Shown here in pieces: positions 196 through 63,654 of a DNA stretch of 64,000 nucleotides. Source of the stretch: Terrabacter sp. Root85 (GTDB lineage: Bacteria; Actinomycetota; Actinomycetes; Actinomycetales; Dermatophilaceae); assembly GCF_001429185.1 (NCBI RefSeq), contig NZ_LMIW01000001.1, positions 646,439 to 710,438 of the forward strand, read 5' to 3'. The position numbers were made by a program, and so were the translations under genes. The notes under the pieces were generated by a model. That model saw only the letters and a program-made list of their open reading frames with translations. It searched no databases and was not told the DNA's origin. Positions within the stretch are counted from its first letter, which is position 1. Every line of letters starts with the position of its first letter.

Positions 196-788
196 GGGAC
201 CACACCGCCTACGTCTTCGACCTCGACGGCGTCGTCCGGGACTTCGCCCCGGGCGACGCCGACCCCGCGATCGAGGCAGCGCTCGGGCTGCCCGCGGGGC
301 ACGTCTCGGCGACGGCGTTCCGCAGCGAGCTGCTCCTGCCGACCATCACGGGCCGGCGCACCTTCGACGAGTGGTATGCCGCCATCTGCGCCGCGCTCGA
401 GGAGGTCGTCCCCGAGCCGGCGCGGGTGCGCGAGCACATGGCGCAGTGGCACGCGAACCGCGGCACGGTCATCGACGAGACCGTCGAGCGCCTCGAGCAG
501 CTGCGTGCGGACGGCCACCGCACGTACGTCTTCACCAACGGCACCGACCAGGTGCCGCAGGAGATGGAGCTGCTCGGGATCACCCGGCTCTTCGACGGCC
601 TGCTCAACACCGCCGACTTCGGCGTGGCCAAGCCCGACCCGATGGCGTATGCCGCCGCTCACCGCGCCATCGAGGCCGACCTCGGGCGCGGGGTGGCCCG
701 CGCCGAGGTCTGGTTCACCGACGACCGCGAGGACAACGTCGAGGCCGCCCGTGAGTTCGGTTGGGACGCAGAGCTCTTCACTCGCTGA
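192..788 (+). CDS. HAD-superfamily hydrolase (phosphatase-like)
   Basis: A 198-residue haloacid-dehalogenase fold protein, probably a small-molecule phosphatase. Motif I is FDLDGV with the nucleophile pair Asp10 and Asp12. Motif II is seen in VFTNGT, motif III in the lysine of FGVAKPDP, and motif IV in WFTDDREDN, in the usual order. The helical cap between motifs I and II fits subfamily IA. The GTG start overlaps the upstream stop (GTGA). A 10-base gap separates it from the convergent clpB end. The substrate cannot be told from sequence; GMP- or epoxide-hydrolase-N-terminal-like members look similar. Confidence 0.85.
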   Translation: MRDHTAYVFDLDGVVRDFAPGDADPAIEAALGLPAGHVSATAFRSELLLPTITGRRTFDEWYAAICAALEEVVPEPARVREHMAQWHANRGTVIDETVERLEQLRADGHRTYVFTNGTDQVPQEMELLGITRLFDGLLNTADFGVAKPDPMAYAAAHRAIEADLGRGVARAEVWFTDDREDNVEAAREFGWDAELFTR

Positions 789-798
789 GTGCCGTGTG

Positions 799-3360
799 TC
801 AGACGAGGTCGAGCGCCTCGCCGTCGGGGTCGACGCCCACCGCGACCGTCGAGCCGTCGCGCACCTCGCCCGAGAGCAGGCCGCGGGCGAGGCGGTCGCC
901 GATCTCCCGCTGCACGAGCCGGCGCAGCGGCCGGGCGCCGTAGGCCGGGTCGTAGCCGCGGGCCGCGAGCCACTGGCGTGCGTCGTCGGTGACCTCGAGG
1001 GTGATGCGCCGGTCGGAGAGCCGCTCGGCGAACGCCCGCACCTGCAGGTCGACGATGTGGGCGAGGTCGTCCCGGCTCAGGGCGTCGAAGACGACGACCT
1101 CGTCGAGGCGGTTGAGGAACTCGGGCTTGAACGACGAGCGCACCACACCCATGACCGACTCCCGGCGTGCGTCGGGGCTCAGCGTCGGGTCGGTGAGGAA
1201 CTGCGAGCCGAGGTTGGAGGTCAGCACGAGGATGACGTTGCGGAAGTCGACGGTGCGGCCCTGGCCGTCGGTGAGGCGTCCGTCGTCGAGGACCTGGAGC
1301 AGGATGTCGAACGTCTCGGGGTGGGCCTTCTCGACCTCGTCGAGGAGGATCACGGAGTAGGGACGACGGCGGACGGCCTCGGTCAGCTGGCCACCCTCCT
1401 CGTAGCCGACGTAGCCGGGGGGCGCCCCGATGAGGCGCGCGACGGAGTGCCGTTCGGAGTACTCCGACATGTCGATGCGGACCATGGCCCGCTCGTCGTC
1501 GAAGAGGAAGTCGGCGAGGCTCTTGGCCAGCTCGGTCTTGCCGACACCGGTGGGTCCGAGGAAGAGGAAGCTGCCCGTCGGCCGGTCGGGGTCGGAGACC
1601 CCGGCGCGCGTGCGGCGCACCGCGTCGGAGACCGCACGCACCGCGTCGGCCTGGCCGATGAGCCGGGCGCCGATGTGCTGCTCCATGTGCAGCAGCTTCT
1701 CGGACTCGCCCTCCATGAGCCGGCCGGCGGGGATGCCGGTCCAGGCTGAGATGACGTCGGCGATGTCGTCGGCGCCGACCTCCTCCTTGACCATCGGCTC
1801 CTCGTCGCCGGTCGTGGCCGCGGCCTCGCGCTCCTGGGCGGTCGCGAGCTCCTTCTCGAGGGTCGGGATGTCGCCGTAGAGGATCTTGGAGGCGGCGCCG
1901 AGGTCGCCCTCGCGCTGGAGCCGGTCGGCCTGGGTGCGCAGGTCGTCGACGCGGGCCTTGAGGTCACCGACGGCGTTGAGCCCGGACTTCTCGGCCTCCC
2001 ACCGGGCGTTGAGGGCGGCGAGCTCCTCGGAACGGTCGGCGAGGTCCTTGCGCAGGCGCTCGAGGCGGTCCTTGCTCGCCGCGTCGCTCTCCTGCTCGAG
2101 GGCGAACTCCTCCATCTTGAGCCGGTCGACGGCACGCCGGAGCTCGTCGATCTCGACGGGGCTCGAGTCGATCTCCATGCGCAGCCGGGAGGCGGCCTCG
2201 TCGATGAGGTCGATGGCCTTGTCGGGCAGCTGGCGGCCGCTGATGTAGCGGTCGGACAGGCTGGCCGCGGCGACGAGCGCCGAGTCGGCGATCGTCACCT
2301 TGTGGTGGCCCTCGTAGCGCTCCTTGAGCCCACGGAGGATGGCGATGGTGTCCTCGACGGAGGGCTCGCCGACGAAGACCTGCTGGAAGCGGCGCTCGAG
2401 GGCGGCGTCCTTCTCGATGTGCTTGCGGTACTCGTCGAGGGTCGTCGCGCCGACGAGACGCAGCTCACCGCGGGCGAGCATGGGCTTGAGCATGTTGCCG
2501 GCGTCCATCGCGCCCTCCCCGCCGGCGCCCGCGCCGACGACGGTGTGGATCTCGTCGATGAAGGTGACGATCTGGCCGTCACTGCCCTTGATCTCCTCGA
2601 GGACGGCCTTGAGACGCTCCTCGAACTCACCGCGGTACTTCGCCCCGGCGATCATCGAGCCGAGGTCGAGGCTGTAGAGGGTCTTGTCGCGCAGGCTCTC
2701 GGGCACGTCGCCCTCGACGATGCGCTGGGCGAGGCCCTCGACGACGGCGGTCTTGCCGACGCCCGGCTCGCCGATGAGGACGGGGTTGTTCTTCGTCCGG
2801 CGCGAGAGGACCTGGACGACGCGGCGGATCTCGGCGTCCCGGCCGATGACGGGATCGAGCTTGCCCTCTCGCGCGCGGGCGGTGAGGTCGGTGCCGTACT
2901 TCGACAGCGCCTCGAAGGTTCCCTCGGGGTTGTCGGACGTCACGGGACGCCCCCCGCGCAGCTCGGGGATGGCCCCCTCGATGGCGTCGGCGTCGAGGCC
3001 GAACTGGCCCGTGCGCGCGAGCGCGAGCAGGAGGTGGTCGGTGGAGACGTAGGAGTCGCCCATCGCCGTCATGTACTGCTGGGCCTGCTGGACCACGCGT
3101 CCCGCCGTCGCCGAGAGCTGCGGCTGCTGGGCGCCGCCGGTGACCTGCGGCATGGCGGCCATGGCCCGCTCGGCGACGGCGGTCGCGGCGGCGACGCTCG
3201 AGCCTCCGGCGGTGAGCAGGGCCGGGGTGGTCGTGCCGCTCTGGGCTGCCAACGCGAGCAGCAGGTGTGCCGGCTCGATGTTCGGGTGGTGCTTGCCCGT
3301 CGCGGTCGTCGCGGCCTGGGCGAAGGCCTCCTGAGCCTTGTTGGTCAGCTGTAGGTCCAT
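799..3360 (-). CDS. clpB: ATP-dependent disaggregase ClpB
   Basis: ClpB (853 aa, normal length) is a hexameric AAA+ chaperone that threads aggregated proteins and works with the DnaK system also encoded here. In order: Clp N-domain (about 1-140), first AAA+ with Walker A GEPGVGKT (Lys203), the long coiled-coil middle domain rich in [18 protein letters not shown] heptads, second AAA+ with Walker A GPTGVGKT (Lys608) and the pore-loop motif GYVGYEEGG. The start is the ATG at 3360, giving the canonical [13 protein letters not shown]; the frame stays open upstream, but that part is spurious. A HAIR operator lies about 50 bp upstream, so HspR repression with heat induction is expected. Confidence 0.97.
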
Positions 3361-3408
3361 GCGTACTCCTGGTGAGGGGATCGGTTCACTGGGGTCAACT
3401 GGCGCTGA

Positions 3409-3429
3409 CTTGAGTCTATTCCACTCAAC
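3409..3429. promoter_or_regulatory. HAIR operator (HspR site) upstream of clpB
   Basis: CTTGAGT - 7 bases - ACTCAAC, one mismatch from the published HAIR consensus CTTGAGT-N7-ACTCAAG. It lies 49 bp before the clpB start and hspR is encoded at 8312-8764, so clpB is a predicted HspR target. Confidence 0.9.
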
Positions 3430-62899: not shown

Positions 62900-62925
62900 G
62901 CCCCCCACCGGGCACCGGGGTCTCC

Positions 62926-62931
62926 TAGGGT
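62926..62931 (+). promoter_or_regulatory. Leaderless -10 box TAGGGT
   Basis: Ends 6 bases before the ATG at 62938. Confidence 0.6.
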
Positions 62932-62937
62932 GCCGAC

Positions 62938-63654
62938 ATGGACGTCCACCTCATCGGCGGCGGCTGGGACGACGCCCTCGCCCCCACGCTCTACGGACCC
63001 TTCGTCGAGGCCGCCGCGCGTCGCGCCGGCGGCACCCCGCGCATCCTGCTCGTCGTCATGGGCACTGACCCCGAGTCGCTCGAGTACCACGAGAAGTACG
63101 TCCACACGCTCGGCCTCGTGGGTGGCCACGACCTCGTCGTGGAGCGGGTGTCCGAGGGCACGCCGCTGGAGCCGGCCGTCCTCGACGGGATCGACGGCCT
63201 CTTCGTCGGCGGCGGCCCCACGCCGGAGTACCACGCGTCGCTCGCGGGCAGCTACCACCGGATCCGAGCCCTCGTGTCCGCAGGTGTGCCGTATGCCGGG
63301 TTCTCCGCGGGGGCTGCGATCGCGGGCTCCCACGCGGTCGTCGGCGGCTGGCTCCTCGACGGGCGGCCCGTCTGCCCCGAGGACAGCAACGAGGAGCTCG
63401 ACGACGTCGCCGTGGTCGGGGGCATCGGCCTCGTGCCGGGAGCCGTCGACGTGCACGCCGCCCAGTGGGGCAACGTCTCGCGCCTCGTCGCCGTGGTGGC
63501 CGCGGGGCTGGCCCCGAGCGGTGTCGCGATCGACGAGGGGACGCTCCTGCGGTCGGACGGTGCGGTGGCCGGCGCCGGACGCGTGTGGCACGTCACGCCG
63601 GACACGACGACGCCCGGCGGGGCGCTCGTGCGGGCTCGGGCCGGAGGTCAATAG
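62938..63654 (+). CDS. Peptidase S51 / cyanophycinase-like protein
   Basis: A 238-residue protein of the type-1 glutamine-amidotransferase-like fold used by peptidase E and cyanophycinase. The nucleophile elbow is YAGFSAGAAIAGS with Ser in place of Cys; the oxyanion region is LFVGGGPTPEYHASLAG, and the third motif is VPGAVDVHAAQWGNVSRL with His. The organism may use it for beta-aspartyl or other acidic peptides; there is no cyanophycin synthetase in the window. The start is set by TAGGGT. Confidence 0.82.
   Translation: MDVHLIGGGWDDALAPTLYGPFVEAAARRAGGTPRILLVVMGTDPESLEYHEKYVHTLGLVGGHDLVVERVSEGTPLEPAVLDGIDGLFVGGGPTPEYHASLAGSYHRIRALVSAGVPYAGFSAGAAIAGSHAVVGGWLLDGRPVCPEDSNEELDDVAVVGGIGLVPGAVDVHAAQWGNVSRLVAVVAAGLAPSGVAIDEGTLLRSDGAVAGAGRVWHVTPDTTTPGGALVRARAGGQ

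What the first reader, a model, noticed from the sequence alone, without database searches (positions are those of the whole stretch)
374..63297. Dispersed 7-mer GGCATAC/GTATGCC, 35 copies in 64 kb
Counted by eye, GGCATAC starts at 3717, 3963, 9613, 15253, 19896, 21948, 26425, 30230, 33730, 37098, 37645, 41353, 46333, 49052, 51383, 53542, 56196, 56915, 58730 and 61612; GTATGCC starts at 374, 648, 9841, 14925, 21663, 24161, 31532, 31856, 35651, 39684, 40596, 44399, 51116, 60428 and 63291. With about 73% G+C, independence predicts roughly 6. Many share a longer core, ACGGCATACGCC. In genes it often forces the rare TAT or GCA codon in Tyr-Ala or Ala-Tyr pairs, and at least five copies are intergenic, so codon preference alone does not explain it. 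Strand use is nearly even (20 to 15), which argues against a polar FtsK-type signal. It may be a modification site, a nucleoid-protein site or a HIP1-like iterated motif.
Basis: seen in the sequence. Interest (0 to 1): 0.72.

Follow-up and report, generated by a model that had tools for sequence, protein, structure and literature searches.

The report
Putative self-DNA uptake tags in Terrabacter
A soil actinobacterium and most genera of its family carry hundreds to thousands of copies of one exact eight-letter DNA word, arranged like the tags that Neisseria and Haemophilus use to recognise their own DNA when they take it up, which would be the first such tagging system outside those two Gram-negative families.

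Summary
All 35 copies are real (one coordinate is off by one); each is the 8-mer CGGCATAC. The window's genome (genus Terrabacter, Dermatophilaceae) holds 2,300 copies against 237 for the reversed word, evenly on both strands; 864 kb hold 410 against 11-23 expected (Markov orders 1-3; 114 at order 4). The 24 one-letter variants together are not enriched (632 vs 610). Copies are 3.7-fold denser between genes and favour gene 3' ends; 26 of 116 intergenic but 0 of 286 genic copies form inverted-pair hairpins. They are conserved among species and depleted in an integrase-rich island. Codon preference does not explain them: Tyr is TAT in 75% of fitting contexts, 3% elsewhere.

Among 396 genomes sampled from the phylum, strong enrichment was seen only in this family. 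There, CGGCATCC replaces it in three genera, CCCCTTCG in two, and CGCCGTAC in one genome; 17 of 53 genera show no such word. ComEC is in 180 of 186 genomes. A Tad ATPase like those needed for transformation in Micrococcus luteus is missing in 6 of these 17 genera and 0 of the 34 with a word. In the window's genome that locus is split by a mobile element.

Best reading: a DNA-uptake-sequence system. Uptake specificity and the receptor are inferred, not shown.

The parts
374..381 (-). CGGCATAC copy
   Evidence: exact match; in gene 192-788
647..654 (-). CGGCATAC copy (reader wrote 648)
   Evidence: exact match; in gene 192-788; kept in 1 of 1 aligned relative
3716..3723 (+). CGGCATAC copy
   Evidence: exact match; in gene 3459-3890
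3962..3969 (+). CGGCATAC copy
   Evidence: exact match; in gene 3900-4157; kept in 2 of 3
9612..9619 (+). CGGCATAC copy
   Evidence: in DnaJ-like gene 8782-9792; kept in 3 of 4
9841..9848 (-). CGGCATAC copy, intergenic
   Evidence: kept in 4 of 4 aligned Terrabacter
14925..14932 (-). CGGCATAC copy
   Evidence: gene 14473-15315; kept in 3 of 3
15252..15259 (+). CGGCATAC copy
   Evidence: gene 14473-15315; kept in 2 of 3
19895..19902 (+). CGGCATAC copy
   Evidence: kept in 5 of 5 aligned relatives
21663..21670 (-). CGGCATAC copy
   Evidence: kept in 5 of 5
21947..21954 (+). CGGCATAC copy, intergenic
   Evidence: kept in 5 of 5
24161..24168 (-). CGGCATAC copy
   Evidence: kept in 5 of 6
26424..26431 (+). 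CGGCATAC copy
   Evidence: not aligned in relatives
30229..30236 (+). CGGCATAC copy
   Evidence: kept in 3 of 4
31532..31539 (-). CGGCATAC copy in malate/lactate dehydrogenase gene
   Evidence: kept in 6 of 6
31856..31863 (-). CGGCATAC copy in malate/lactate dehydrogenase gene
   Evidence: kept in 1 of 6
33729..33736 (+). CGGCATAC copy
   Evidence: kept in 1 of 6
35651..35658 (-). CGGCATAC copy
   Evidence: kept in 1 of 6
37097..37104 (+). CGGCATAC copy
   Evidence: kept in 2 of 3
37644..37651 (+). CGGCATAC copy, intergenic, immediately after a stop codon
   Evidence: gene ends at 37643; kept in 2 of 4
39684..39691 (-). CGGCATAC copy
   Evidence: kept in 2 of 2
40596..40603 (-). CGGCATAC copy
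   Evidence: kept in 2 of 2
41352..41359 (+). CGGCATAC copy
   Evidence: kept in 6 of 6
44399..44406 (-). CGGCATAC copy
   Evidence: kept in 5 of 6
46332..46339 (+). CGGCATAC copy
   Evidence: kept in 5 of 6
49051..49058 (+). CGGCATAC copy
   Evidence: kept in 6 of 6
51116..51123 (-). CGGCATAC copy
   Evidence: kept in 3 of 5
51382..51389 (+). CGGCATAC copy
   Evidence: kept in 5 of 5
53541..53548 (+). CGGCATAC copy
   Evidence: kept in 4 of 4
56195..56202 (+). CGGCATAC copy
   Evidence: kept in 2 of 4
56914..56921 (+). CGGCATAC copy
   Evidence: kept in 3 of 4
58729..58736 (+). CGGCATAC copy, intergenic, beside the 3' end of hutU
   Evidence: kept in 3 of 3
60428..60435 (-). CGGCATAC copy, intergenic between hutH and hutU
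   Evidence: kept in 3 of 4
61611..61618 (+). CGGCATAC copy in hutH gene
   Evidence: kept in 2 of 2
63291..63298 (-). CGGCATAC copy
   Evidence: kept in 0 of 1

Best explanation
CGGCATAC (in context often [A/G]CGGCATACGCC) is a DNA uptake sequence: a genome-wide self tag for natural transformation in Dermatophilaceae. Inferred mechanism: a minor pilin or other surface protein of the Tad/Flp competence pilus binds the word in outside DNA; ComEA and ComEC then bring the DNA in. Fragments with the word recombine more often, so copies spread and are kept wherever proteins tolerate them. Between genes the word is reused in inverted pairs as hairpins near gene ends. When the receptor changes, the genome moves to another dialect (CGGCATCC, CGCCGTAC, CCCCTTCG). 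Shown: the word, its exactness, anatomy, conservation, depletion in mobile DNA, restriction to one family in the sample, other amplified words in some relatives, presence of ComEA/ComEC and Tad loci. Inferred: sequence-specific uptake, the receptor, the terminator role, the cause of dialect change.
For: Amplified, exact, non-polar: 410 copies in 864 kb vs 12.6 at order 2; the 24 one-letter variants total 632 vs 610 expected; 1,132 forward and 1,168 reverse. Intergenic 1.36/kb vs genic 0.37/kb. Convergent gaps 3.05/kb, divergent 0.76/kb; median 40 nt from the upstream stop in 66 co-directional cases. Of 26 neighbour pairs under 60 nt apart 23 are inverted; 8 of the 17 GTATGCCG..CGGCATAC pairs have a spacer of exactly 14. 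Hairpin pairs (spacer 4-30) hold 26 of 116 intergenic copies and 0 of 286 genic ones. Hairpin pattern: 40 places in this genome, up to 207 in a relative, reversed control 0-2 in 80 genomes. Kept in Terrabacter relatives 102 of 134 vs 48% for flanking 8-mers. Between the first and last integrase of an island: 9 copies in 74 kb, 35 expected. Dialects. ComEC in 180 of 186 genomes; ComEA-ComEC pair; Tad loci. Tad-1-like TadA missing in 6 of 17 genera without a dialect, 0 of 34 with one. Published DUS/USS hallmarks match: thousands of copies, dialects, inverted-pair terminators (PMC3630211, PMC12616744, passages).
Against: No uptake experiment exists and no receptor was identified. ComEC is near-universal in the family, so it does not discriminate. 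Of 20 sampled genomes poor in CGGCATAC only 4 show another word that passes the intergenic test; 17 genera have none found. 11 of these 17 still have the tad-1-like TadA; complete dialect-C genome G486 shows only a paralogue-level match, and incomplete G494 and G573 lack it. The window's own tadC is split by a mobile element, so this strain may not be competent now. Dialect sites are not exchanged in place: 1 of 8 and 1 of 6 aligned sites. Dialect D rests on one genome and 160 kb. The genus test ignores phylogeny. A motif-specific methyltransferase was not tested. The only families named as having such discrimination in a 2025 paper are Gram-negative (PMC12616744, passage).
Confidence: 0.63

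Rival explanations
1. Methylation-linked iterated motif (HIP-like): a methyltransferase recognises the word and a linked repair or restriction process creates and keeps copies.
For: Dispersed, symmetric, phylogenetically restricted, depleted in mobile DNA. HIPs also have alternates in some genomes (PMC4390886, abstract and passages).
Against: The word is not palindromic, HIPs are. Inverted-pair hairpins found only between genes, often with a 14-nt spacer, and the bias to gene 3' ends are not expected. Methyltransferase co-occurrence was not tested.
Confidence: 0.13
2. Recombination signal (Chi-like) for a RecBCD- or AdnAB-type nuclease.
For: Short, exact, frequent, conserved; Chi-like words also differ between lineages (recalled).
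Against: Chi and KOPS-type signals are strand-biased (recalled); here strands are even genome-wide (1,132/1,168) and within four contiguous blocks. Inverted-pair hairpins are not a Chi feature (recalled).
Confidence: 0.07
3. Binding site of an abundant chromosome-organising or regulatory protein.
For: Spread over both strands without large gaps (mean gap 2.1 kb, largest 10.3 kb in 864 kb).
Against: Replacement by an unrelated word such as CCCCTTCG, mobile-island depletion and gene-end hairpins fit less well.
Confidence: 0.1
4. Codon or codon-pair preference (Tyr-Ala, Ala-Tyr).
For: 174 of 286 genic copies read TAT-GCC and 68 read GCA-TAC.
Against: TAT is 2.9% of Tyr codons where neither flank fits but 75% in the context G_GCCG; density is 3.7 times higher between genes; 25 of 37 ATA codons lie in the word. 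A word of codon type, CCTGCTCG, shows the opposite (0.22 vs 0.75 per kb).
Confidence: 0.01
5. REP/MITE-like element or plain terminator repeat.
For: Intergenic inverted pairs fold well and copies lie near gene ends.
Against: 286 of 410 copies lie inside genes, none of them in a hairpin pair.
Confidence: 0.03

Closest known systems
DNA uptake sequence (DUS) of Neisseriaceae, receptor ComP
   Same: Short exact word in thousands of copies, inside and between genes, inverted pairs at terminators, dialects within one family (PMC3630211, abstract and passages).
   Different: Different phylum and a one-membrane cell envelope; Tad/Flp loci and no N_methyl prepilin found (0 of 27 genomes) instead of type IVa pili; no ComP-like receptor identified; one dialect (CCCCTTCG) is unrelated to the others, whereas DUS dialects share the core CTG.
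Uptake signal sequence (USS) of Pasteurellaceae
   Same: About nine-base core, hundreds to thousands of copies, inverted repeats that act as terminators, two types by clade (PMC12616744, passages).
   Different: USS has further, less conserved parts beside the core (PMC12616744, passage; A/T-rich as recalled); no A/T-rich flank is seen here (profiles).
HIP1 and alternate HIPs of cyanobacteria
   Same: Highly iterated octamer with replacement words in some genomes (PMC4390886, abstract and passages).
   Different: HIPs are palindromic and methyltransferase-linked; this word is not palindromic.
Micrococcus luteus Tad/Flp competence system
   Same: ComEA, ComEC and two tad loci, the apparatus needed for transformation there (PMC4322843, passages); the same kinds of genes are found here.
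   Different: The terms 'uptake sequence' (PMC4322843) and 'uptake sequence', 'uptake signal', 'DUS' (PMC8467076) do not occur in those papers.

Membership tests
DUS/USS uptake-sequence systems | Hundreds to thousands of copies, far above a Markov expectation | tested here: met
   2,300 vs 237 for the reversed word; 410 vs 11-23 at orders 1-3 and 114 at order 4 in 864 kb
DUS/USS uptake-sequence systems | Exact short core with near-matches not enriched | tested here: met
   24 one-letter variants 632 vs 610 expected in sum; largest excess among frequent ones CGGCATCC 197 vs 88, then CGGCATTC 15 vs 8.7 and CGGCCTAC 83 vs 54
DUS/USS uptake-sequence systems | Both strands used about equally | tested here: met
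   1,132/1,168, binomial P 0.47
DUS/USS uptake-sequence systems | Intergenic enrichment with inverted pairs able to form terminator stem-loops | tested here: met
   termination itself not tested
DUS/USS uptake-sequence systems | Dialects following lineages within a family | tested here: met
   A counted in 186 genomes, B and C in 80, D in 160 kb of one genome; no tree was built, and 17 of 53 genera have no word found
DUS/USS uptake-sequence systems | Depleted in mobile DNA | tested here: met
   9 vs 35 expected over the 74-kb integrase span; 0 in the 10.2-kb tadC element; two regions of one genome only
DUS/USS uptake-sequence systems | Competence DNA channel and pilus present | tested here: met
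   ComEC 180 of 186 genomes; TadA-type ATPase 27 of 27; but the tad-1-like tadC is split in the window's genome
DUS/USS uptake-sequence systems | DNA with the word is taken up preferentially | not testable with these tools
   needs an uptake assay
DUS/USS uptake-sequence systems | Identified sequence-specific receptor pilin | tested here: inconclusive
   pilin-like genes of the tad-1-like locus listed in seven genomes; no candidate singled out
HIP (highly iterated palindrome) | Palindromic octamer | tested here: not met
   CGGCATAC reverse complement is GTATGCCG
HIP (highly iterated palindrome) | Cognate methyltransferase co-occurs | not tested
   no search spent on it
Chi / KOPS polar signals | Strand bias along a replichore | tested here: not met
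   even in four blocks: 95/87, 48/59, 41/45, 20/15; replication direction itself not determined
REP/MITE repeats | Mostly intergenic palindromic unit | tested here: not met
   286 of 410 copies inside genes

The most novel reading that the evidence does not exclude
A third, independent origin of self-DNA uptake tags, the first in a Gram-positive (one-membrane) family and the first read through Tad/Flp pili, with at least four dialects that replace each other, one of them an unrelated word, and an arms race in which a serine-recombinase element without the tag, and perhaps others, split the competence-pilus genes.
Probability: 0.52. Interest if true: 0.93.

Novelty: new variant of a known kind. 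Interest (0 to 1): 0.85.

Why it matters
[quoted passage not shown] A further case in a distant phylum, with a different pilus and with sister genomes that differ in dialect, would make the question of why and how uptake tags evolve directly testable by comparison. It would also predict that many soil actinomycetes of this family are, or recently were, naturally transformable, and suggest how DNA could be tagged for laboratory genetics in these genera.

Tried and rejected
Order-5 Markov model of the 7-mer: expects 33 of 35, but is trained by the motif itself, so not used as a test; at order 4 the 8-mer is 410 vs 114 in 864 kb.

Dialect hunt: 20 genomes poor in CGGCATAC were sampled (40-160 kb each). 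Four gave a word that passes the intergenic test: G570, G445, G485, G477. Dropped because not, or hardly, denser between genes: CGGCGTAC in G397, G408, G409, G483; GCCGCTAC in G507; CGTAGACC in G402 (0.52 vs 0.40 per kb, n=33); CCGCATCG in G476. Some may still be weak dialects. G413 (CGTACGCC 12 vs 2.6) was not tested further. No clear word in G396, G405, G431, G489, G547 and G576, a weak one in G414, and only a short-period repeat in G415. Genera g239 and g247 (153-322 copies of A) were set aside as weak and left out of the 34 vs 17 test.

Presence of ComEC does not separate genomes with and without a dialect. N_methyl prepilins: 0 of 27. In-place conversion between dialects: not supported (1 of 8, 1 of 6). 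A Neisseria DUS shares ATGCCGTC with the extended word here (12-mer DUS recalled; its 10-mer is in a passage of PMC6370729); taken as coincidence. The island borders 1.05-1.12 Mb (7 copies in 70 kb, 33 expected) were chosen after seeing the counts; the span from first to last integrase, fixed, gives 9 vs 35. Searches for print on CGGCATAC or on uptake sequences in this family or phylum; nothing relevant in the rows listed; several listings were only the top 8-30 rows (30 of 8,933). Two working notes were wrong and are mended here: 8, not 10, pairs have a 14-nt spacer (10 have 13-15); and G396, G431 and G489 have one strong TadA hit, not two.

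
Full report
What was checked. The 20 + 15 copies are all present; one start is 647, not 648. Every copy is the 8-mer CGGCATAC, 23 of 35 continue with G, and 8 are ACGGCATACGCC. The window is G000:C1:646439-710438 of a 4,865,335-base genome in 15 contigs. The family is therefore Dermatophilaceae (name recalled; it agrees with a record title).

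Is it more than chance? In 864 kb (window plus 800 kb) there are 410 copies against 10.6, 12.6, 22.5 and 114 expected at Markov orders 1-4. Whole genome: 2,300 against 237 for the reversed word. High-order models are trained by the word itself: 35 of 37 CATAC in the window lie in it, so the order-5 expectation of 33 for the 7-mer is circular. The 24 single-substitution variants sum to 632 against 610 expected at order 2; among those with ten or more copies the largest excess is CGGCATCC, 197 vs 88.

Not codon preference. In the context G_GCCG, Tyr is TAT in 174 of 232 cases, against 102 of 3,531 where neither flank fits. 174 of 334 TAT codons and 25 of 37 ATA codons lie in the word. The word is denser between genes (1.36/kb) than in them (0.37/kb): 116 intergenic, 286 genic, 8 at edges (binomial P 1e-26). 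A codon-type word, CCTGCTCG, shows the opposite (0.22 vs 0.75/kb). Genes were called by a simple codon-usage script, not by a standard gene finder.

Anatomy. Strands are even genome-wide and in four blocks. Intergenic density is 3.05/kb in convergent gaps, 1.38-1.49 in co-directional and 0.76 in divergent ones; for 66 copies in co-directional gaps the median distance is 40 nt to the upstream stop and 75.5 nt to the downstream start. Of 26 neighbour pairs closer than 60 nt, 17 are GTATGCCG..CGGCATAC, 6 are the reverse arrangement and 3 point the same way; 8 of the 17 have a spacer of exactly 14 and 10 of 13-15. Pairs with spacer 4-30 hold 26 of 116 intergenic copies and 0 of 286 genic ones. Ten such hairpins fold at -11 to -27 kcal/mol with stems usually running beyond the word (z -1.9 to -7.1). 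Across 80 family genomes the hairpin pattern has 40 places in G000 and up to 207 (G442); the reversed control has 0-2.

Conservation. In six Terrabacter relatives (85-95% identity), 102 of 134 aligned window copies are perfect against 47.8% of 1,338 flanking 8-mers at offsets of 24-60 bases in steps that keep the codon phase (P 3e-10). TAT codons in the word stay TAT in 71 of 87 comparisons, others in 10 of 31 (P 2e-6). Comparisons among related species are not independent, so these P values are too small.

Mobile DNA. From the first to the last integrase of an island (C8:1,045,016-1,119,219) there are 9 copies in 74 kb against 35 expected. In the inner 70 kb, whose borders I chose after seeing the counts, there are 7 against 33; 150 anagram words are not depleted there (0.052 vs 0.044/kb in neighbouring DNA).

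Range. Of 396 genomes sampled over the phylum, four belong to this family and three of them (G000, G085, G139) have 1,251-2,476 copies; outside the family the largest count is 386 (G050, control 176), with some higher ratios at low counts (G276 161 vs 30, G214 15 vs 2). In the family (186 genomes, 53 genera) 30 genera include a genome with 900 or more copies (maximum 4,724, G493); the other 23 have at most 322.

Dialects. Twenty genomes poor in the word were sampled; four show another amplified word that is, like A, denser between genes: B CGGCATCC in G570 (2.91 vs 1.02/kb), C CCCCTTCG in G485 (4.55 vs 0.50) and G445 (1.08 vs 0.60), D CGCCGTAC in G477 (1.55 vs 0.55; 105 copies in 160 kb). Sixteen of the 20 gave none that I accept. 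Whole-genome counts in 80 genomes: B 3,949 in G570, 3,816 in G411, 4,480 in G427, and 2,195 in G429, which also has 1,217 A; the next highest is 1,210 (G546, control 280). C 1,781-3,180 in six of six tested genomes of g261 and g270, at most 386 in the other 74. The congener G478 of G477 has 3,681 A. A named example of B is a Humibacillus MAG (L004: 17 B, 1 A in 21 kb). By genus, 34 carry A, B or C in at least one genome, 17 have none found, 2 are weak. B and C were counted in 80 of the 186 genomes only, so some of the 17 may carry a word that I missed.

Apparatus. ComEC is in 180 of 186 genomes; in G000 it follows a ComEA-type gene. N_methyl prepilins were found in 0 of 27 genomes, TadA-type ATPases in 27 of 27. 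In Micrococcus luteus two tad loci with ComEA/ComEC are required for transformation (PMC4322843, passages). G000 has three tad loci; I call the one on C13 tad-1-like from its pilin genes, which is my reading. The orthologue of its TadA is absent (only paralogue-level matches or none) in the sampled genomes of six genera (g238, g246, g250, g262, g263, g272), all without a dialect; each of the 34 genera with one has at least one genome with a match above paralogue level (P 7e-4 uncorrected for phylogeny). Against this, 11 of 17 genera without a dialect keep it, complete genome G486 (dialect C) shows only a paralogue-level match, two incomplete genomes of A-carrying genera (G494, G573) lack it, and several A genomes have intermediate scores (for example G511, G517, G466), which I take, without proof, for split genes.

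An unexpected link. In G000 that locus is interrupted: the two parts of tadC lie 10.2 kb apart (C13:100132 and 110298), separated by an element with a large serine recombinase (Resolvase and Recombinase domains) and no copy of the word (Poisson P 0.008); pilin, tadE and tadG genes follow. In G570 (B) the tadC match ends at nearly the same codon, in G477 (D) a little later, and in G565 the tadA match ends near residue 300; what interrupts these was not worked out. Conflict between mobile elements and transformation is a described theme (PMC11472951, PMC12637031, PMC4774983: search listing and starts of abstracts only). This fits a locus used for transformation, and it also means the window's own strain may not be transformable today.

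Judgement. The anatomy matches the published hallmarks of DUS and USS (PMC3630211 abstract and passages; PMC12616744 passages). That the word steers uptake is inferred. A methylation-linked motif is the main rival and was not tested by gene co-occurrence. The searches of print listed in Tried and rejected showed no report of this word or of uptake sequences in Actinobacteria in the rows listed, within a library that lacks most subscription journals.

Noticed in passing
G000 C13:100133-110297 (L224/L240): A 10.2-kb serine-recombinase element splits tadC of the tad-1-like locus; the tadC match ends at nearly the same codon in G570 and a little later in G477; the tadA match ends near residue 300 in G565 and G567.
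   Followed up: partly
G429 (genus g249): One genome carries two dialects at once: 2,195 CGGCATCC and 1,217 CGGCATAC, as if in transition.
   Followed up: no
G400, G401, G403 (g3) and G434, G435 (g252): The reversed control CATACGGC is also high (453-578), perhaps because the word is often followed by GGC there, which would inflate the control.
   Followed up: no
G546 (g280): CGGCATCC 1,210 against 280, above its two tested congeners (624 and 949); perhaps a weak or young dialect.
   Followed up: no
L145-L146 (G408): Intergenic word ACGAAATGC, 9-10 copies in 40 kb against 0.1 or less expected; another dispersed element.
   Followed up: no
L137-L140 (G547): Intergenic words within ACCAATAGGTCA, 10 copies each in 80 kb against about 0.1 expected.
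   Followed up: no
G276 (other family of the phylum): CGGCATAC 161 against 30 for the reversed word in 1.8 Mb, a mild excess far from this family.
   Followed up: no
window 49507-49623 (-): TPP riboswitch above the Rfam gathering score.
   Followed up: no
window 799-12487: Heat-shock cluster on the minus strand: DnaK, DnaJ-like, ClpB, ordinary.
   Followed up: no
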